64,000 bases of DNA. It comes from Streptomyces sp. NBC_01431 (GTDB taxonomy: Bacteria; Actinomycetota; Actinomycetes; Streptomycetales; Streptomycetaceae). The stretch spans positions 372,001-436,000 of the forward strand of contig NZ_CP109496.1 of the NCBI RefSeq assembly GCF_036231355.1, given 5' to 3'. The notes below the pieces were generated by a model, which was not told the DNA's origin, ran no database searches, and worked only from the letters and a program-made list of their open reading frames with translations. The translations under genes and the position numbers were made by a program. Below, piece by piece: positions 1,147 through 8,160 of the stretch (position 1 is its first letter; every line of letters begins with the position of its first letter).

Positions 1147-1194
1147 AGGTCGTTTCATGAGTTGTCGCAAGCGGCTAAATGTCTGAAACGACCT
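1147..1194. repeat. 11-bp perfect inverted repeat beside IS remnant
   Basis: AGGTCGTTTCA and its exact reverse complement TGAAACGACCT are separated by 26 bases, directly beside the 3' end of the transposase remnant. It could be an IS terminal-repeat remnant or a terminator hairpin. Confidence 0.5.
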
Positions 1195-1700
1195 CATGCA
1201 ACGGCGCGTGACCCTCGTCGTTCACGAGCACAAGCGGCTCGGCCGCGGGGGCTCGTCATCACAACCGGTGCGAAGAAGGGACAGAACCCATCGCCCGCGA
1301 GCGCCCCAGCCCGTGATCGCCGGGTTCGGAGAAGACACCGCCCAGCGGTTCCTTCTGCAGGTCGCTCTGCTCGCGAGCACCAGCCGCATGCTGATGGGCA
1401 CGGCACACCGTGGAGTCGACGCTCAGGTCCCATCTGATCGCGCCCTTCGCGTCGGCCAACCACTGGAGCCGGGTGAGGAGTCCGGTGCCACGTGTCGTCC
1501 CGCTGCCATCGGCGGACCATGTCGTAGGCCCAGCCCCAGGAGCCCGTACTCGACGGGTGCATCCCGCCACGGGCCACCGGTTCGGACGCGGAACCGCAGG
1601 CCGTCGATCAGTCGCGGCCGGACCGAACGGGCAGTCGCCCCGCCCTCCTTCCCCTCGGCAACAGCCGCTCCCACATCGCCCATTGACCGTCCGTGAGCTC
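1195..1700 (-). pseudogene. IS5-family transposase remnant
   Basis: Read on the minus strand, characteristic IS5-type pieces appear in order but in different frames: RPRLIDGLRFRVRTG then GGPWRDAP, AYDMVRRWQRDDTWHR, and WDLSVDSTVCRAHQHAAGAR. At least two frameshifts separate them and the second half of the transposase is missing. The closest relative inside this window is the split element near 41 kb, which has the matching LIDGIRWRTRTGAPWRDVP and HQHAAGAR motifs. It lies just beyond the 3' end of the bac-type operon and is a trace of past mobility. It cannot encode a working transposase. Confidence 0.8.
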
Positions 1701-1854
1701 ACCCCGCGCCATGGAAAGCGACCATTCACAGATCAAGATCCATTTTCGATACACGGCCTCGCGGCACGCGGAAGGCGCTTGCCCGGGGCTTTTGCCCTGG
1801 CAGGCGCCTTTCGCTCGGACCGCTCAGCCGGTCTGCTCCCGGAGCGGCCTTCTG

Positions 1855-2148
1855 TCACACCTCTACGTCGACGATGACCCAGTCGCTGATCTCCCGCCAC
1901 TGCCGGATCGCGTCGTGGTGAAAGGGATGGACGAGGTAGCGGTCGACCTTGTCCATGTCGTCCATGACTCCCTCGGTGAGAAAGTCGTATGCGATGTCCC
2001 GCGCGGACACGTTGCGCCCGTATCGCCAGTCACGGACTTCGGGTACTTGGCTGCCCACCTTGGCGGCGGTGCGTTCCGCCGCCAAGGCGCGCGGGTCGTT
2101 CCAGTCGACCCCCGGCTTGAACTTGAAGAGCACGATGTGGCGGATCAC
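1855..2148 (-). CDS. Dabb (stress-responsive A/B barrel) domain protein
   Basis: A 97-residue single-domain protein with the Dabb pattern: IRHIVLFKFKPG at the N terminus, a central strand region YDFLTEGVMDD, then YLVHPFHHDAIRQW and a last strand WVIVDVEV. Dabb proteins are small dimeric ferredoxin-like barrels; some act on polyketides or other small molecules. The GTG start overlaps the chorismate mutase stop as GTGA and has GAGGAGA upstream, so translation is probably coupled. It is the last gene of the bac-type operon. Its role is unknown; by position it may act on a pathway intermediate or shield a reactive product. An alternative GTG lies 18 bases upstream. Confidence 0.85.
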   Translation of the reverse strand: MIRHIVLFKFKPGVDWNDPRALAAERTAAKVGSQVPEVRDWRYGRNVSARDIAYDFLTEGVMDDMDKVDRYLVHPFHHDAIRQWREISDWVIVDVEV

Positions 2149-2408
2149 AGGGCTTCTCCTCGGCACAGTTTGAGTACGTTCATCGCGATCTGGGTGCCGC
2201 CCGCTCCGAGTCCGTCCTGGTAGCGGGACAGAATGTCCATTTCCCGGGAGAACACCATGCGCGGCCCGCCGGAGTGCATGCGGCTCTGCTGGATGCGGGC
2301 GGATATCCGGGCCCGTTCGGCGAGCAGGTCGATGATGCGCACATCGAGGCAGTCGATCGCTACGCGATCCGCTTCGATCCGGGCACCGGCTTCGTTCGTG
2401 TCAGTCAT
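2145..2408 (-). CDS. Chorismate mutase, AroQ type, short
   Basis: An 87-residue all-helical AroQ-class protein that should convert chorismate to prephenate, the substrate of the BacA-type decarboxylase in the same operon. Aligned by eye to E. coli chorismate mutase, Arg11, Arg28, Arg51 and Glu52 correspond to Arg15, Arg32, Arg55 and Glu56. Lys39 corresponds to Arg43, and the protein ends before the region holding Gln88. It overlaps the aminotransferase stop by 8 bases and has AAGGA upstream. A pathway-dedicated chorismate mutase gives local prephenate supply. The Arg43 change and short C terminus could lower activity or require a partner. Confidence 0.85.
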   Translation of the reverse strand: MTDTNEAGARIEADRVAIDCLDVRIIDLLAERARISARIQQSRMHSGGPRMVFSREMDILSRYQDGLGAGGTQIAMNVLKLCRGEAL

Positions 2409-3591
2409 GGTCGGGGTCCTTGTGTGTGCCGTTTCGTAAGTCGGCCAGGCGGATGACGGCCTCCTTGAGCCGGTCCTCCGGTGCCAGCAGGCTCACCCGT
2501 ACGTATCCTTCGCCGTGTTCTCCGAACCAACGGCCGGGTGCCACCGCCACCTTGGCCCGGGTCAGCAGGTCGTCGGCGAACGCGCTGGAGCTGCCTCCGC
2601 CGGGCACCGGCAACCAGGCGAAGATCGACTGGGGCAGGTCGATGTGCCATCCGGCGTCCCGTACTCCCGCCACGAAGACGTCCCGTCGGCGCTCGTAGGT
2701 CCTCGCCAGTTCCTCAACGCAGTCCTGGGGGCCGGTCAGGGCGACGGCGGCCGCCCGCTGGATGAAGGACGGGAGGGAGACGTAGTAGTGCTCCTGGAGG
2801 AGGTTGATCGCGGCGACGACATCGGGGTTGCCGACGACGGCTCCGATCCGCCATCCGGCCATGTTGAACATCTTCGACAGCGAGATGAACTCGACGCCCA
2901 CTTCCATGGCACCGTCCGTCTGCAGGAAGGAGCAGGGGGCCCGGCCGTCGAAGCCCAGCGCTGCGTACGCGAAGTCGGATGCCACGACCACCTGGTTCCG
3001 TGCGGCGAACCGGACCGTTTCCTCGTAGAACTCCGGCGGTGCCGTCACGGAGGTGGGGTTGTTGGGATAGTTCAGGAACATCAGCTTCGCCCGGTCGCAG
3101 GTGGCCGGGTCGAGGGCCGAGTAGTCGGGCAGGAAACCGTTCTCCCGCAGTAGCGGCATGGCATGCATCCGCGCCCTGGCGAGGACCACTCCTGACCAGT
3201 AGTCGGGGAAGGCCGGGTCTGGCATCAGGCAGACATCGCCCGGATTCAGCAGACACTGGCTGATCTCCACCAGACCCGCTTTCGCGCCGAACAGGATCGC
3301 GACCTCGGACTCGGGGTCCAGGTGAACCTGGTGATGCGTCGCGTACCACTGGGCGACGGCAGCCTTGAGTTCGAGCAGCCCGGAGAAGGCCGGGTATCGG
3401 TGGGTGGCGGGGTCGAGCACTTCCCTGCGCAGCGCTTCGACGATGTGGGGCGGGGTCGGAAGATCGGGATTCCCCTGGCACAGGTTGACGACGTCCTCTC
3501 CAGCCTTGACGAGTTGGTCGATCCTGCTCACGGTCGTCGCGAACGAACTTCTGGGCAGGTCCAGGAGCCGACGTGCGAACTCAGTCTTCAC
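2401..3591 (-). CDS. bacF: PLP-dependent aminotransferase, BacF type
   Basis: A 396-residue fold-type I class I/II aminotransferase. It has GNPDLPTPPHIVEALR near residue 40, NYPNNPTS near 174-181, the PLP-binding Asp206 in ASDFAYA, and the Schiff-base Lys240 in SLSKMFNMAGWR. These stretches match my recollection of Bacillus BacF closely. In bacilysin synthesis BacF transaminates tetrahydro-4-hydroxyphenylpyruvate to tetrahydrotyrosine, and the same reaction is expected here. The GTG start is chosen for the AAGGTGG just upstream; it overlaps the MFS stop by 11 bases. A start 45 bases further upstream would overlap that gene more. Confidence 0.92.
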   Translation of the reverse strand: MKTEFARRLLDLPRSSFATTVSRIDQLVKAGEDVVNLCQGNPDLPTPPHIVEALRREVLDPATHRYPAFSGLLELKAAVAQWYATHHQVHLDPESEVAILFGAKAGLVEISQCLLNPGDVCLMPDPAFPDYWSGVVLARARMHAMPLLRENGFLPDYSALDPATCDRAKLMFLNYPNNPTSVTAPPEFYEETVRFAARNQVVVASDFAYAALGFDGRAPCSFLQTDGAMEVGVEFISLSKMFNMAGWRIGAVVGNPDVVAAINLLQEHYYVSLPSFIQRAAAVALTGPQDCVEELARTYERRRDVFVAGVRDAGWHIDLPQSIFAWLPVPGGGSSSAFADDLLTRAKVAVAPGRWFGEHGEGYVRVSLLAPEDRLKEAVIRLADLRNGTHKDPDHD

Positions 3592-4903
3592 CGGCGACCA
3601 CCTTCGTCTCGTGTTCCTCGGCCTCAGCGCCCGCACGGGCCGGCTCCCCTTCGTTGCGGCGCCCGTATGCCCATCCGCTCAGGCCGAACGCGACGAGGGT
3701 GATACCGCCGCAGGCCCAGCCCACCGCGGTAAATCCGTGTGCGGCGAACAGGGGGCCGAGGACGGCGGCCCCCATGGCCACGGCGAGGTTGGTCGTGAAG
3801 CTGTAGAAGGCGAGGACGGTCCCGCGATAGTGCTGAGAACTTTCGCTGAGCAGCGTGCTGAGCAGCGTGACGACCAGGCTCTGCATGGCGCCCCACAGGA
3901 AGAGACAGACCATCAGCAGCGGTGTCCAGCGCACGACCAGCGGGACGACCACCAGTGCCGGGACCAGCCCTGCCAGCAGCCCGACGAGCACCTTCTCCTT
4001 GCCCAGTTCGTCGGCCCACCGGCCGGTGACGAAGCTCGTCGAGAACCCCAGCCCGTAGACAAGGATCATGATGCCGGTCAGGAGACTCTGGGAACCGAAC
4101 TGGTACTGCAGGGCGCTGCCGAGATAGGTGTACATGCCGTAGAAGCCGAGCATGTTCAGGAACGTCGCCAGTATGTACACGAGCACGTTGGGCGCCAGGA
4201 AGGCACGGGCGGCCGATCGCGCCCAGCCCTTCCCCGAGGGCCCCGTCGCATCCTCTTCCGACGCGTGTGACGGGGTGTCAGGACGGGGCCGGCTCTCGCT
4301 CCGAACCCGCAGCAGTACGCAGATCACGAGGACACCCAGGACGGTCAGCAGGGCGAACGCCCACCTCCAACTCACCCACTTCCCGATGAAGGATCCCAGC
4401 GGGACCCCCAGGACGAGTGACAGCGACCAGCTCGATACGACGATCCCCATGGCCTTGGCCCGATGGCGATACGGGATCTGATCACCGACGAACGCGTAGG
4501 CAGTCGGCACGAACGCACCCGTCGCCAGGCCGGACAAGGCCCGTCCGGTGAAGAACACCCCCGGCCCGCCGGCGGACGCGCACAGCACGGTGCCCAGGAC
4601 GAACACCGTCATCCCGACCAACAGGCTGAGGCGTCGTGACACCTTGTCCCCGAGCGGGGCGAAGAGCAGGGCACCAACCGCCGTACCGATGCCGTAGACG
4701 GTGACGGAGAGCGCCATCACGGCCACCGACATGTCGAACGACCCGGCCATGTCCACGAGGAGGGGTGAGACAACCAACTCCTCCGAACCGACGGCGAATA
4801 TCCCCGCCATCAGCGCGAGCACCGTGAGTAGGGGGAACCCCGCCGTGCCCTCCCTGCTGCTCAATCCATCCGGCACTCCGGCCAACCTTTCTTCCAGTTG
4901 CAT
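3581..4903 (-). CDS. bacE: MFS exporter, BacE-like
   Basis: A 440-residue major-facilitator protein with about twelve membrane segments; the loop after segment 2 has the MFS signature APLGDKVSRR. Gene order puts it in the place of the BacE exporter, which in Bacillus gives self-resistance by exporting bacilysin. Here it would export the free amino-acid product. I use the ATG of MQLEERL, 13 bases after the upstream stop. GTG and ATG starts 54 and 36 bases upstream are in frame, and none of the three has a good ribosome site. The bacE assignment rests on position and family more than on recalled sequence. Confidence 0.8.
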   Translation of the reverse strand: MQLEERLAGVPDGLSSREGTAGFPLLTVLALMAGIFAVGSEELVVSPLLVDMAGSFDMSVAVMALSVTVYGIGTAVGALLFAPLGDKVSRRLSLLVGMTVFVLGTVLCASAGGPGVFFTGRALSGLATGAFVPTAYAFVGDQIPYRHRAKAMGIVVSSWSLSLVLGVPLGSFIGKWVSWRWAFALLTVLGVLVICVLLRVRSESRPRPDTPSHASEEDATGPSGKGWARSAARAFLAPNVLVYILATFLNMLGFYGMYTYLGSALQYQFGSQSLLTGIMILVYGLGFSTSFVTGRWADELGKEKVLVGLLAGLVPALVVVPLVVRWTPLLMVCLFLWGAMQSLVVTLLSTLLSESSQHYRGTVLAFYSFTTNLAVAMGAAVLGPLFAAHGFTAVGWACGGITLVAFGLSGWAYGRRNEGEPARAGAEAEEHETKVVAGED

Positions 4904-4916
4904 GCGATGGGCACGG

Positions 4917-5666
4917 CTAGATGGCCGTGTAGCCGCCATCGACAGTGAGCGCGGCACCCGTGACGAATGACGACTTGTCCGATGCGAGGAACAGGATCGC
5001 GTTCGCGACGTCTTCGGGGGTGCCCAGCCGCCCGATCGGATTCAGCTTCGCCTTCTGTTCCTTCACAGCGGCGTCGTTGCCGATGGACGTGTCCGTCATC
5101 GGCGTGTCGATGATGCTGGGGCAGACACAGTTGGCCCTGATGTTGTACTTCGCGTAGTCGGCGGCGAGCGATTTCGTCAGCATCATCACTCCCCCCTTGG
5201 TGGTGTTGTAGGCAGCGATGCCGGGCCAGGCCACCAGCCCGCTCACGGAGCAGACGTTCACGATCACGCCGCTCGTCGCCTCGATCATCTGGTGCAGGGC
5301 GTACTTCGAGCACAGGAACATGCTCTTGAGATTGGTGTCGAGCAGCTTGTCCCACTCGGCCACGGGCATCTCGTGAAGCGGCGTGGAGATCTCGATGCCG
5401 GCGTTGTTGACCAGGATGTCGACCCGGCCGAAGTTTCCGGCCGCGGCAGCCATCAGGTTCTCGCAGTCCTCCTCGCTCGTGAGGTCGGTCCTGACGAAGA
5501 CCGCATCGTGTCCTTTGCTCGTCAGCCCGGCGACGACAGCGGTGCCGCCTTCCTCGTCGATGTCCCCGACGACGACCTTCGCGCCCTGGCGGGCGAACTC
5601 GATCGCGGTCTGCTTCCCGATCCCGGACGCGGCACCGGTGACCACGACCACGCTGTCCTCGAACAT
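4917..5666 (-). CDS. bacC: NAD-dependent short-chain dehydrogenase, BacC type
   Basis: A 250-residue classical SDR. The cofactor loop is TGAASGIG (10-17), NNAG is at 87-90, and catalytic Ser140, Tyr153 and Lys157 are present (YNTTK). Distinctive stretches shared with Bacillus BacC as I recall it include NNAGIEI, SGLVAWPGIAAYN, NCVCPSIIDTP and the terminal DGGYTA. BacC oxidises the ring C4 hydroxyl of dihydroanticapsin to the ketone of anticapsin, so its presence argues that the pathway ends at an anticapsin-like epoxyketone. The ATG is chosen for AGGGGA seven bases upstream; an ATG 24 bases earlier is possible. Confidence 0.93.
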   Translation of the reverse strand: MFEDSVVVVTGAASGIGKQTAIEFARQGAKVVVGDIDEEGGTAVVAGLTSKGHDAVFVRTDLTSEEDCENLMAAAAGNFGRVDILVNNAGIEISTPLHEMPVAEWDKLLDTNLKSMFLCSKYALHQMIEATSGVIVNVCSVSGLVAWPGIAAYNTTKGGVMMLTKSLAADYAKYNIRANCVCPSIIDTPMTDTSIGNDAAVKEQKAKLNPIGRLGTPEDVANAILFLASDKSSFVTGAALTVDGGYTAI

Positions 5667-5680
5667 GAACTCGTCCCCTT

Positions 5681-6448
5681 TCACACGCATGTCAGTTGCC
5701 CCCCGTCGACCGAGATCTGTTGCCCGGTCAGATAGGACGCCGCGTCGGATGCCAGAAACCCGATGACGGCGGCGACCTCGTCGGCGCTCCCCGGCCTGTC
5801 CACGGGAATTGCCTCTCTCAGTCGGTCCTCGGCCTGTTGCCGCGATATCCCGCCGGCCCGGCTCATCTGCTCCACGGCTCGGTCGTAGCGCTGGGTCCGG
5901 ATGGTGCCGGGGTGCACGCAGTTCACGGTGATGTTGTGCCTGGCGTACTGACTCGCCAGATACTTGCTCGCATTCGAGACGGCCGCATTCACCAGACCGG
6001 AGAGGAACATGCCGGGGGCGGGCTCTTTCCCGATGTTTCCGACGACATTGACGATCCGGCCGAATTGATCCCTCATCATCACCGGCGCGACGGACTTGAT
6101 CAGGTCCAGGTAGGGCACGAGCTTCTGGCCCATCGCAGAGCTCACGTCATCGCTGGTCACATGATCGAAGAAGCCGGGCGCCGGGCCTGGCGCGTTGTTG
6201 ACCAGCACGTCGATCCTGCCGAATCGGCGTTTCGCGTAGTTGACCAGTTCATCACGGTAGGACGGCACGGTGATGTCGCCCGGAAACACGTGGACCGGCT
6301 GCCCGCCTACGGTGTCTCCGGCGACTCTCTCCAACGCATCCGAACTCCGGGCACAGAGTACGGTCACGTAGCCTTTGGAGCTCAAGTGCAATGCGGTTGC
6401 CCGCCCGATGCCGCGACTGGCGCCCAGAACTATGGCAACCCGCGTCAC
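5681..6448 (-). CDS. bacG: NADPH-dependent SDR reductase, BacG type
   Basis: A 255-residue SDR with GASRGIG (9-15) and NNAPGPAP, but Ser158 occupies the place of the catalytic Tyr (SNASK instead of YxxxK; Lys162 is kept). The same region of Bacillus BacG, as I recall it, also lacks the Tyr, and both share GRIVNVVGNxxKEP, NAAxxNASK and HNITVNC. BacG performs conjugate hydride addition to dihydro-hydroxyphenylpyruvate to give the tetrahydro compound, chemistry that need not use the usual Tyr acid. The GTG start overlaps the cupin stop as GTGA, indicating translational coupling. Confidence 0.92.
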   Translation of the reverse strand: MTRVAIVLGASRGIGRATALHLSSKGYVTVLCARSSDALERVAGDTVGGQPVHVFPGDITVPSYRDELVNYAKRRFGRIDVLVNNAPGPAPGFFDHVTSDDVSSAMGQKLVPYLDLIKSVAPVMMRDQFGRIVNVVGNIGKEPAPGMFLSGLVNAAVSNASKYLASQYARHNITVNCVHPGTIRTQRYDRAVEQMSRAGGISRQQAEDRLREAIPVDRPGSADEVAAVIGFLASDAASYLTGQQISVDGGQLTCV

Positions 6449-7161
6449 TCAGATTCCTGCCCATTCTTCTCCGGCCCGCTGTCCTCTTTGGGCACCCGGT
6501 GATAGCGGGGCGGAATGAAGATGTTGAGGGAGCGCGCCACTCCCGTATTGGGGTTTGCGGCGCCGTGGCCCTCCTGGCTCGCACAGAAGTAGGTACCGCC
6601 GAACCGCAGCTCATGACTCGCCTCTTCGACCGTCATTTCGTACCTCCCTTCGAGGCATATCCCTATCTGCTCGTGTGAGTGCTTGTGATAGGGCATCTCG
6701 CCGCCACTGGGAATATCGGCGATCATGAGCTCGATCCAGTCGGCCAGAAAGAACGTGACGTCCATCCCGACGAACTTGCGCGACTCGATCGGCTCCAGAA
6801 AGTAGCCGTCCGGCGCGGGGTAGGAATCGCCCGGGGTGCCGCGCCGGATCTCCAGGACCACGGTTTCTTCCGCAGACGTGTTGACGGCCGCGAGCGCAAC
6901 GCCGACAGGGGCGACGTAGACGTCCCCCTCGGGCCTCATCAGCTTCGTCACGTCCCCGACCGTCACGGACAGTTCGCCGCGAACCACCATCCCGACCTGC
7001 GCAGCATCGGAGGAACGAGTCTCCAGGACGGCGCCGGGAGGCATGAAGGCAACCCTCACCTCGGTGGCTTCACGCCGATAGGACTCGAAACGGATCCCAT
7101 CCTCGTTGAGCATCACGTCGGGAGCCGGGAAGTAGCGGCGCTCGTGAGTTTGCGCGGTCAT
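6445..7161 (-). CDS. bacB: Bicupin isomerase, BacB type
   Basis: A 238-residue protein of two cupin domains, close to the length of Bacillus BacB. The second cupin has a complete HxHxxxQ...H metal set: His159, His161, Gln165 and His199. In the first cupin the matching positions are Arg49, Ser51, Gln55 and Leu90, so that metal site appears lost. BacB isomerises the endocyclic to the exocyclic dihydro-hydroxyphenylpyruvate. The start is ATG in an ATGA overlap with the bacA stop, with GGAAGGA upstream. The C-terminal tail (VPKEDSGPEKNGQESE) is charged and probably flexible. Confidence 0.92.
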   Translation of the reverse strand: MTAQTHERRYFPAPDVMLNEDGIRFESYRREATEVRVAFMPPGAVLETRSSDAAQVGMVVRGELSVTVGDVTKLMRPEGDVYVAPVGVALAAVNTSAEETVVLEIRRGTPGDSYPAPDGYFLEPIESRKFVGMDVTFFLADWIELMIADIPSGGEMPYHKHSHEQIGICLEGRYEMTVEEASHELRFGGTYFCASQEGHGAANPNTGVARSLNIFIPPRYHRVPKEDSGPEKNGQESE

Positions 7162-7799
7162 TTGCGGTCCTTCCTTCGGGAGAACACAGTCCACGTCATG
7201 GGGATCCGTGAGAATTTGTAGACGAACTTCAGGCTGTGCTGCTCGACGGCCCGCTCATTCGTGATGGCGATGTTGTACCGCCCGTCGGCGACACTTCCGG
7301 CGGCCTGACTCGTGGAGTCCGCGATGGCCAGTTTCACCGGACCGTCGAAATGGTGACCCAGCAACGGAACGGGCGCCGGATGGGATACGACAGTATCCCT
7401 GTAGAGCAGTTCTTCACGGAAGGCGAAATTCAGCCTGGTCGCCAGGCCGTACTCCGGAGTACTCCCACGAAAAACAGCTGCTGGCTCCAAACCCGGGTTC
7501 ATATAGAAGGCGTTTATCTTGGGATAAGCATGGGCCACCAACACGAGGTCGACACGCCCTCCCGTAAGGGAATTTGCGCATTGTTCGTACGTGTTCTCCA
7601 GGAGGATTTGAAATCCTCCACGGTCACCGAGGGTGCGCGCCAGAAGTTGGGCAATGTACTCACTGCTGGTCCCTTCTGGCCCCAGCGTTCCGAGCCTTAC
7701 AGAGGGTGCGGAACCGACTGGAACAAGCGCGTTCAGTGCGCGTCTTTCAATGTCAGGGATCTGGAGTATCTCCACGCCCACCCTCTTTCCTGTCGCCAT
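7158..7799 (-). CDS. bacA: Non-aromatising prephenate decarboxylase, BacA type
   Basis: A 213-residue protein related to prephenate dehydratase but of the BacA/SalX/AerD class. TLGPEGTSSEY (38-48), HAYP, VSHPAP, ITNERA and IPMTWTVF match Bacillus BacA as I recall it. It should decarboxylate prephenate without aromatisation, giving dihydro-hydroxyphenylpyruvate. It is the first gene of the operon. I use the ATG with AAGGC nine bases upstream; ATG and TTG starts 21 and 30 bases earlier are in frame. Hand-counted 60-base blocks near 7501-7620 are only about 50% GC, well below the rest of the window, which suggests acquisition by transfer. Confidence 0.93.
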   Translation of the reverse strand: MATGKRVGVEILQIPDIERRALNALVPVGSAPSVRLGTLGPEGTSSEYIAQLLARTLGDRGGFQILLENTYEQCANSLTGGRVDLVLVAHAYPKINAFYMNPGLEPAAVFRGSTPEYGLATRLNFAFREELLYRDTVVSHPAPVPLLGHHFDGPVKLAIADSTSQAAGSVADGRYNIAITNERAVEQHSLKFVYKFSRIPMTWTVFSRRKDRK

Positions 7800-7829
7800 T
7801 TCGAAAGCCTTCGGCCCCATTGACTGCAA

Positions 7830-8160
7830 GAAAACGCCTACATCCAGTCATTGTTCGGACATGGCGAGATCCACAAAGAACGACACTGCCGAGCGGGTTA
7901 ATTCGGAGGCAAATCCGGAGGTCACCACAGAAATATCCCCTCGCCAGGCGTCATACTCTCCACGCTCTTCACCCTCTTCACGCGAAGCAATGGGCCGCGA
8001 TTGACCTCTTGCTCGAAGCGCACGCCACTATAGGCATCGCGATCTTGAACGAGTCAAGGAAGTGGATCACCGAAAAGTCTCATTGTGTCCATTTCGCGCA
8101 AGCCAGAAACCAGACCTTAACGCCGTTACGCAAACCGAGCGGATTTGGCCAGCCGGGCCG
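7830..8160. promoter_or_regulatory. Leader and probable promoter region of the bac-type operon
   Basis: About 330 bases of lower GC than the surroundings upstream of bacA, with no supportable gene. All eight downstream genes are tightly packed, so the operon promoter should lie here. I could not pick out a convincing -10/-35 pair or operator by eye, and no regulator gene adjoins it. Confidence 0.4.

What the first reader, a model, noticed from the sequence alone, without database searches (positions are those of the whole stretch)
1855..7799. Bacilysin-type anticapsin operon without the BacD ligase
Eight tightly packed minus-strand genes encode BacA, BacB, BacG, BacC, a BacE-like exporter and BacF, plus chorismate mutase and a Dabb protein. 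The matches to the Bacillus proteins are specific (BacC NNAGIEI and IIDTP, BacG NASK in place of YxxxK, BacA TLGPEGTSSEY). No ATP-grasp ligase is in the window. Established knowledge: BacD joins Ala to anticapsin, and free anticapsin was, as I recall, first isolated from a Streptomyces (S. griseoplanus). Inference: this operon makes free anticapsin or a close relative, with prephenate supplied within the operon.
Basis: partly seen in the sequence, partly recalled or inferred. Interest (0 to 1): 0.95.

Follow-up and report, generated by a model that had tools for sequence, protein, structure and literature searches.

The report
Anticapsin operon with a replaced isomerase
This Streptomyces DNA carries genes that match those Bacillus uses to build the antibiotic warhead anticapsin, but not the ligase that joins it to alanine, so it would release the free amino acid; one metal site of its enzyme BacB is gone, and a small barrel protein, encoded beside predicted prephenate decarboxylases in distant bacteria too, likely does that lost step instead.

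Summary
The eight-gene minus-strand operon is real (1855-7775). BacA, BacB, BacG, BacC and BacF are homologues of the Bacillus bacilysin enzymes; no BacD lies in this window or near 12 other actinobacterial bac operons. Two points change the reading. (1) The exporter matches Bacillus YwfA (52%, 407 bits), not BacE; BacD and BacE are absent together. (2) BacB keeps one of four ligands of its N-terminal cupin metal site, while the C-terminal site is intact in all 51 BacB rows. The Dabb protein at the operon's end is the likely substitute: 12 of 12 actinobacterial genomes searched with an N-lost BacB hold a close Dabb (66% or more), 0 of 6 genomes with an intact N-site do. Of 19 plasmid records with a BacA homologue, 18 hold a Dabb homologue within 5 kb (Streptomyces, Pantoea, Pseudomonas, Photobacterium), 11 of them without BacB. 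The cyanobacterial isomerase AerE keeps the N-site and not the C-site, which points to allylic isomerisation as the step taken over. Product, Dabb activity and the C-cupin's role are inferred. The full operon is in 2 of 392 Streptomyces.

The parts
7158..7775 (-). bacA homologue: predicted prephenate decarboxylase, 205 aa, GTG start
   Evidence: 36-40% to Bacillus BacA, TLGPEGTSSEY
6445..7161 (-). bacB homologue: bicupin; C-terminal metal site HHQH intact, N-terminal site lost (R,S,Q,L in place of H,H,Q,H)
   Evidence: 3h7j 208 bits; ligand table; overlaps bacA by ATGA
5681..6448 (-). bacG homologue: SDR reductase with NASK in place of YxxxK
   Evidence: 3u49 best PDB hit, 228 bits; motif
4917..5666 (-). 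bacC homologue: dihydroanticapsin 7-dehydrogenase type SDR, 249 aa, YNTTK
   Evidence: 5itv best PDB hit, 279 bits; best NCBIfam model is anticapsin_BacC, 294 bits, but below its cut-off of 525
3581..4903 (-). MFS exporter matching Bacillus YwfA, not BacE (start codon uncertain, ORF opens at 4957)
   Evidence: 407 bits to the gene upstream of bacA in Bacillus, next Bacillus MFS 79 bits; no BacE match
2401..3591 (-). bacF homologue: class I/II aminotransferase, 396 aa, GTG start; one TTA codon
   Evidence: 6l1l 369 bits; 45-46% to Bacillus bacF
2145..2408 (-). chorismate mutase type II, 87 aa
   Evidence: PF01817 and NCBIfam NF005894 over cut-off
1855..2148 (-). Dabb (dimeric alpha/beta barrel) protein, 97 aa, GTG start; predicted H2HPP isomerase replacing the BacB N-terminal cupin
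   Evidence: PF07876 63 bits; model pLDDT 92; co-distribution

Best explanation
The operon encodes homologues of the Bacillus anticapsin enzymes BacA, BacB, BacG, BacF and BacC with a YwfA-like exporter and no BacD ligase, so it likely makes and exports free anticapsin, and its Dabb protein likely carries out the double-bond isomerisation that the lost N-terminal metal site of BacB is predicted to perform in Bacillus. Steps: chorismate mutase supplies prephenate (predicted from family); BacA decarboxylates it without aromatising (known for Bacillus BacA; inferred here); Dabb, by acid-base catalysis in a dimeric barrel, moves the endocyclic diene into conjugation, the predicted job of the N-cupin of BacB and AerE (inferred); the conserved C-terminal cupin of BacB does a second, anticapsin-specific step, E/Z control or epoxidation (inferred, unresolved); BacG reduces, BacF transaminates, BacC oxidises the C7 hydroxyl (known in Bacillus, inferred here); the YwfA-like pump exports the amino acid and protects GlmS (inferred). 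Shown here: gene content, the pump's match to YwfA, absence of BacD and BacE near the operons, loss of the N-site with relaxed constraint on that domain, and the Dabb co-distribution.
For: BacA/B/G/C/F homology. Pump. BacD absent near the actinobacterial operons and best 38% genome-wide there, while the same search scores 54% in Tumebacillus and 100% in Bacillus. N-site intact in 8 of 51 BacB rows (five Bacillota, L013, P0058, P0065), C-site in 51 of 51 (some rows are the same protein from two sources). Dabb of 66% identity or more in 12 of 12 actinobacterial genomes searched with N-lost BacB, in 0 of 6 with intact N-site: L013's genome has only a 41% Dabb, five Bacillota none at 1e-8 (Fisher p 5e-5, uncorrected for kinship). 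In 78 pairs of 13 N-lost loci the N-domain dN/dS exceeds the C-domain's in 77 (medians 0.41 and 0.12; one search showed 11 of the pairs); six Bacillus pairs 0.02-0.08 against 0.03-0.08. Domain identity 59.5% N / 84.3% C among N-lost, 79.6 / 83.5 among the three intact actinobacterial rows. Plasmids: 18 of 19 BacA records hold a Dabb within 5 kb, BacB in 7 of those 18. Chromosomes: the three best Dabb hits outside the own genome lie near a BacA homologue and no BacB. AerE 5zbe keeps the four N-site ligands and one of four C-site ligands, by eye in the printed alignments, and is listed as a 1,3-allylic isomerase (PMC7700177, table passage). Dabb keeps the two histidines that align with His5 and His78 of olivetolic acid cyclase (that these are catalytic is recalled).
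Against: No chemistry was measured. The N-site label needs only 3 changes on the BacB tree (bootstrap 2-3), so the 12/0 split is not 12 independent events. Vibrio halioticoli has a BacA homologue (30%) with neither Dabb nor BacB in the 16.6 kb fetched. Bacillus and Tumebacillus have no Dabb, so it is not needed for anticapsin as such. The literature's producer, S. griseoplanus (now Peterkaempfera griseoplana), is not among the 15 loci or the named protein hits. L032 holds BacB plus Dabb without BacA nearby, and L012 lacks BacC. The fold matches include cofactor-free oxygenases (SnoaB), so the fold does not choose isomerase over oxygenase. General Dabb proteins (39-48%) occur in many Streptomyces; all but three of those were not inspected for a BacA neighbour.
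Confidence: 0.55

Rival explanations
1. The operon makes a dipeptide after all: a ligase encoded elsewhere in the genome joins anticapsin to an amino acid, so the product works like bacilysin.
For: The own genome has four LAL_C2 matches and a ligase 36% identical to BacD over residues 83-364 at C1:7747724; similar ligases (36-38%) in the genomes of L006 and L011. Free anticapsin enters cells poorly (PMC9293202, passage), so a dipeptide would be the better weapon.
Against: That ligase type occurs in 36 of 295 Streptomyces, in only 3 of 12 actinobacterial operon holders, and lies far from the operon, beside a PAS-LuxR regulator and, in L041, a PPDK_N protein. BacE is missing too.
Confidence: 0.2
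2. The product is not epoxidised: with the BacB N-site gone the pathway ends at tetrahydrotyrosine or a cyclohexenone amino acid.
For: BacB's N-site is lost. The four-enzyme Bacillus route ends in tetrahydrotyrosine (title of Mahlstedt and Walsh 2010 seen in the reference list of PMC5754491). No dedicated epoxidase is in the operon. L012 lacks even BacC.
Against: BacC, whose Bacillus substrate is the epoxide dihydroanticapsin (PMC9147277 section 4), is kept in 11 of 12 other actinobacterial operons (L005-L014, L031, L036; exception L012) and in the window. The C-cupin is invariant.
Confidence: 0.25
3. Dabb is the epoxidase (a cofactor-free oxygenase like SnoaB) rather than an isomerase.
For: SnoaB and proteins titled antibiotic-biosynthesis monooxygenases are in the fold matches; an oxygenase is what the pathway lacks on paper.
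Against: Five Bacillota genomes with bac operons have no Dabb match. Dabb sits with BacA homologues in nine loci (L101-L103, L105-L110) without BacB; no BacG or BacC match there except one general SDR, 38% to BacC, outside the module in Pantoea. Its presence tracks loss of the N-cupin, whose relative AerE is an isomerase.
Confidence: 0.15
4. The N-site loss is unrelated: the N-cupin is only a scaffold in actinobacteria and Dabb is a bystander carried along.
For: Few independent losses.
Against: Dabb accompanies BacA homologues in 18 of 19 plasmid records across two phyla; the N-domain shows relaxed constraint where the site is lost and not in Bacillus.
Confidence: 0.15

Closest known systems
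Bacilysin (bac/ywf) operon of Bacillus
   Same: BacA, BacB, BacG, BacC, BacF homologues (36-54% identity) and a match of the neighbouring gene ywfA
   Different: No BacD, no BacE; gene order A-B-G-C-pump-F; chorismate mutase and Dabb added; BacB N-terminal metal site lost
'Anticapsin' cluster match reported for Streptomyces sp. JV178 (antiSMASH/PRISM; PMC5754491, passages)
   Same: Proteins named for that strain, P0022 and P0060, are 66% and 70% identical to window BacA and BacB; this type of cluster is thus in print as an automatic match
   Different: The passages seen give no gene content and do not mention the missing ligase, YwfA, Dabb or BacB metal sites
Tumebacillus lacus bac locus (L015)
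   Same: A-B-G-C order; BacC 65% and BacF 67% identical to the window's
   Different: Has a BacD orthologue (54%) and a second ATP-grasp protein, shikimate-type genes upstream (by eye), intact BacB N-site, no Dabb
Aeruginosin AerD-AerE-AerF (Choi) route of cyanobacteria
   Same: Prephenate-derived, with a bicupin isomerase and a reductase; 5zbe and 6jh7 are the second-best PDB hits of BacB and BacG (that these are AerE and AerF is recalled, in line with titles)
   Different: 5zbe keeps the N-site and one of four C-site ligands, the mirror image of the window's BacB; no epoxide in the product (recalled)
Dabb / ligase-like / transaminase / BacA / OCD module on Streptomyces, Pantoea, Pseudomonas and Photobacterium plasmids
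   Same: BacA homologue with a Dabb
   Different: No BacB match; product unknown to me

Membership tests
Bacilysin biosynthesis operon | BacA, BacB, BacG, BacF, BacC enzymes | tested here: met
Bacilysin biosynthesis operon | BacD alanine-anticapsin ligase | tested here: not met
   none in window or near 12 other actinobacterial operons; so it is not filed as a bacilysin operon
Bacilysin biosynthesis operon | BacE exporter | tested here: not met
   no tblastn match at E 0.01; the pump matches YwfA
Anticapsin pathway (free amino acid) | anticapsin or dihydroanticapsin made in dependence on the operon | not testable with these tools
   needs LC-MS
BacB bicupin isomerase | two HHQH metal sites | tested here: not met
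   C-site met, N-site R,S,Q,L; it is a BacB homologue with one site
Dabb family PF07876 | match over the curated cut-off and ferredoxin-like barrel fold | tested here: met
H2HPP allylic isomerase (function) | isomerises the BacA product | not testable with these tools
   inferred from co-distribution only
YwfA transporter | reciprocal best match to the gene next to Bacillus bacA | tested here: inconclusive
   one direction met by a wide margin (407 against 79 bits); YwfA was not searched over the whole own genome, but the window pump's best paralogue there scores 80 bits

The most novel reading that the evidence does not exclude
BacB is two enzymes in one chain: the N-terminal cupin is the allylic isomerase of prephenate-decarboxylase pathways and the C-terminal cupin, the only metal site common to every anticapsin operon seen, is the long-missing epoxidase. 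Streptomyces reveals the split by having outsourced the first half to a Dabb protein, the founding member of a new isomerase class that partners prephenate decarboxylases in Actinobacteria and Gammaproteobacteria.
Probability: 0.22. Interest if true: 0.87.

Novelty: new variant of a known kind. Interest (0 to 1): 0.7.

Why it matters
Anticapsin is the active part of bacilysin and acts by blocking GlmS. Which enzyme makes its epoxide has, to my knowledge, not been settled, and I found no paper on the genes for free anticapsin in actinomycetes in the searches run. A natural operon in which one half of BacB seems to have been replaced separates its two metal sites and turns both questions into simple enzyme assays. 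The Dabb link also offers a function for a common 'stress barrel' family and a handle on a set of unread gene clusters with BacA homologues. The pump result predicts that YwfA, not BacE, exports the free amino acid.

Tried and rejected
BacD near the operons: looked for with Bacillus and Tumebacillus BacD and the second Tumebacillus ATP-grasp; none. LAL_C2 (PF18603) as a proxy for BacD: dropped, because Bacillus BacD itself does not match it; its four own-genome hits are 25-30% to BacD. A resistant second GlmS: two full GlmS genes in the genome, neither near the operon; two copies are usual in Streptomyces (recalled), so nothing was made of it. A larger cluster: about 12 kb left of the window, read by eye, shows nothing that looks like part of it. 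In the 11 loci, apart from the operon genes and reading frames overlapping them, flanking families are shared only by the sister pair L009/L010 (eight) and by the window and L005 (one); that map kept only reading frames with coding-like base composition, as did those. Promoter and terminator scans found nothing on the operon's strand. The BacB-like protein of G943 (31%) lies in another cluster beside what looks by eye like a Rieske protein and was set aside. Fold classes: no choice between isomerase and oxygenase could be made. Absence in print rests on the ten searches, of open-licence papers only; of these I saw listings (one search listed 30 of 34) and passages of the papers named; one search was mostly noise. 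Rajavel 2009, Parker and Walsh 2013, Mahlstedt and Walsh 2010 and two 1970-71 anticapsin papers are not held; what I say of them beyond titles is recalled, among it that an N-terminal mutant of Bacillus BacB lost activity and that a ligand sat in the C-terminal site. Contig-length links between BacB and Dabb clusters (10 pairs) were used only as a lead; P0065, an intact-site actinobacterial row, has no Dabb of its contig length, but clustering could hide one, and P0058's contig (2250 bases) is too short to tell. Relatives of L013: no further BacB in 48 others. Selections: alignments A1, A2 and A3 used 13 of 33, 12 of 39 and 26 of 48 protein hits besides the query. The earlier dN/dS run showed 11 of 36 pairs; one search did all 78 pairs of 13 loci, with one pair against the trend.
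Full report
Observation. The window holds eight overlapping or adjacent minus-strand genes between 1855 and 7775. Family scans give Dabb, chorismate mutase, class I/II aminotransferase, MFS pump, two SDR enzymes and a cupin; BacA matches no Pfam model at 0.001. Against solved structures the best hits are Bacillus BacB (3h7j), BacG (3u49), BacC (5itv) and an aminotransferase, 6l1l. Against the bac loci of four Bacillus genomes (L016-L019) identities are BacA 40%, BacB 44-46%, BacG 44%, BacC 52-53%, BacF 45-46%. The operon lies 374-380 kb from the start of an 8.18 Mb contig that I take to be a linear Streptomyces chromosome; its upstream half is in a stretch of lower G+C (0.63 for 4001-8000, 0.66-0.70 elsewhere).

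How common. BacB was found in 3 of 392 Streptomyces genomes, the own one included; two hold the full operon and one (G179, L032) only BacB and Dabb. In 394 genomes of the family 5 matched, the own one included and one only a distant cupin; in 394 genomes of the class only the own genome did. A pattern scan of the collection of 84,980 species gave 10 actinobacterial and 5 Bacillota loci. Seven Streptomyces plasmid records carry BacA, BacB and Dabb; in pSMg1-1 of Streptomyces sp. Mg1 I read the operon. Flanking genes are hardly shared between loci. It is a rare cassette that seems to move.

The ligase. BacD from Bacillus and Tumebacillus finds nothing near any of the actinobacterial operons. Genome-wide, the controls score 100% and 54%; the own genome has seven weaker matches, best 36% at C1:7747724, none in the window. 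That ligase type is in 36 of 295 Streptomyces at E 1e-30. BacE is missing as well. In Bacillus, bacD and bacE lie side by side between bacC and bacF, so the pair looks like a dipeptide module absent from the actinobacterial form. Tumebacillus, closer to the window in BacC (65%) and BacF (67%), still has BacD, which makes loss plausible; I did not root a tree to test this.

The pump. The window's MFS protein hits the gene directly upstream of bacA in Bacillus at 52% and 407 bits; the next Bacillus MFS scores 79 bits. That this gene is ywfA follows from its place and from papers that list ywfA with the bac genes (PMC8773019, passages). It does not match BacE. I infer that YwfA exports the free amino acid.

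BacB. Bacillus BacB is reported to bind Fe and Co (PMC3765361, passages). In 51 BacB rows the four C-terminal ligands are intact in all 51; the four N-terminal ligands in 8: five Bacillota, L013, P0058 and P0065. The window has R, S, Q, L. Some rows are half way (P0049 H,H,R,L; P0043 H,R,Q,L; P0066 H,R,Q,C). In 77 of 78 pairs of N-lost loci the N-domain has the higher dN/dS (medians 0.41 and 0.12); in Bacillus both domains are held alike. Domain identities agree.

Dabb. L013, the only actinobacterial operon with an intact N-site whose surroundings I could read, is also the only one of the 12 with a readable downstream end that lacks Dabb. Searched genome by genome, 12 of 12 actinobacterial genomes with an N-lost BacB have a Dabb of 66-99% identity; L013's genome has only a 41% Dabb and five Bacillota have none at 1e-8. 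L010's operon is cut by its contig end, but its genome has the Dabb on another contig. Kinship is not removed: on the BacB tree the label needs 3 changes, and L013 and P0065 group with Bacillota at 89/91, below the starred level.

Dabb outside the operon. In L032 BacB is followed by Dabb at the end of an NRPS cluster with two carbamoyltransferases. In 394 class genomes the three best Dabb hits outside the own genome (G223 72%, G408 and G725 46-47%) each lie within about 4 kb of a BacA homologue (36-40%) with no BacB match; the lower hits, 39-48%, were not inspected. In 72,556 plasmid records BacA homologues occur in 19 and Dabb homologues in 20; 18 are the same records, and in all 18 the two lie within 5 kb. 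These are about seven lineages: S. goshikiensis/Mg1/ADI95-16, S. scopuliridis, NBC_00464/01022, WZ-12, Pantoea, Pseudomonas, Photobacterium. Eleven of the 18 have no BacB match. Exceptions: Vibrio halioticoli has a BacA homologue without Dabb; Paracoccus and Burkholderia have weak Dabb matches without BacA. A common order is Dabb, phenylacetate-CoA-ligase-like protein, transaminase, BacA homologue, ornithine cyclodeaminase, with DUF2000 after Dabb in Pantoea and Pseudomonas. In nine non-bac loci (L101-L103, L105-L110) no BacB matched at E 0.1 and no BacG or BacC at 0.01, but for one SDR outside the module in Pantoea.

Mechanism. The cyanobacterial relative 5zbe (AerE, recalled) keeps the N-site ligands and one of the four C-site ligands (by eye), and AerE is listed as a 1,3-allylic isomerase (PMC7700177, table passage). 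So the N-cupin is the likely isomerase, and Dabb, present where that site is lost and beside BacA homologues where BacB is absent, its likely replacement. The Dabb model is confident (pLDDT 92); fold relatives include olivetolic acid cyclase, 4-methylmuconolactone methylisomerase, LsrG and the cofactor-free oxygenase SnoaB, so acid-base isomerisation fits without excluding oxygenation. The C-cupin is then the only metal site I recognise that is common to all these operons; whether it epoxidises is open. Against it, the four-enzyme Bacillus route ends in tetrahydrotyrosine (title only); for it, a review's table has BacB make epoxy-H2HPP (PMC9147277, passages and section 4).

Known and new. An anticapsin cluster match has been reported for Streptomyces sp. 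JV178, and NCBI names some of these genes BacA. S. griseoplanus is reported to make anticapsin (PMC9272926, PMC9293202, passages). I found no paper on the missing ligase pair, YwfA as its pump, the lost BacB site or Dabb with prephenate decarboxylases in the ten searches listed under Tried and rejected, which cover open-licence papers only. Verdict: a real, rare, BacD-less variant of a known pathway, with a testable replacement of one enzyme half.

Noticed in passing
L015:4545-16306: Tumebacillus lacus bac locus sits behind shikimate-type genes (by eye) and carries, after BacD, a second ATP-grasp protein and another MFS pump; it may make a longer anticapsin peptide.
   Followed up: partly
L012:9388-14613: Streptomyces coeruleorubidus operon, about 10 kb from the chromosome end, has no BacC; its product may stop at dihydroanticapsin.
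   Followed up: no
L032:29-10298 and L037:928-6343: BacB and Dabb as a pair at the end of an NRPS cluster with two carbamoyltransferases and genes that look by eye like the 4-hydroxyphenylglycine route; no BacA match nearby.
   Followed up: partly
L106:6227-11771, L107:5645-11073, L108:5753-11172, L109:5142-10792: Conserved module Dabb, (DUF2000), phenylacetate-CoA-ligase-like protein, transaminase, BacA homologue, ornithine cyclodeaminase in Streptomyces, Pantoea and Pseudomonas plasmids; product unknown to me.
   Followed up: partly
L039:9290-10930: ATP-grasp protein 36% identical to BacD on the other chromosome arm beside a PAS-LuxR regulator; this kind of ligase occurs in 36 of 295 Streptomyces genomes and in L041 lies beside a PPDK_N protein.
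   Followed up: partly
window 1194-1729: Overlapping reading frames that look like a decayed IS5-type transposase just downstream of the operon (by eye only).
   Followed up: no
L101:8379-15093: In G223 a bac-type Dabb (72%) follows a chorismate mutase and a menaquinone-type (VitK2_biosynth) protein and precedes a BacA homologue; a Dabb shared between two pathway types.
   Followed up: partly
L067:8199-10242: A bicupin 31% identical to BacB with an apparently intact N-site next to what looks like a Rieske-type oxygenase in another Streptomycetaceae genus.
   Followed up: no
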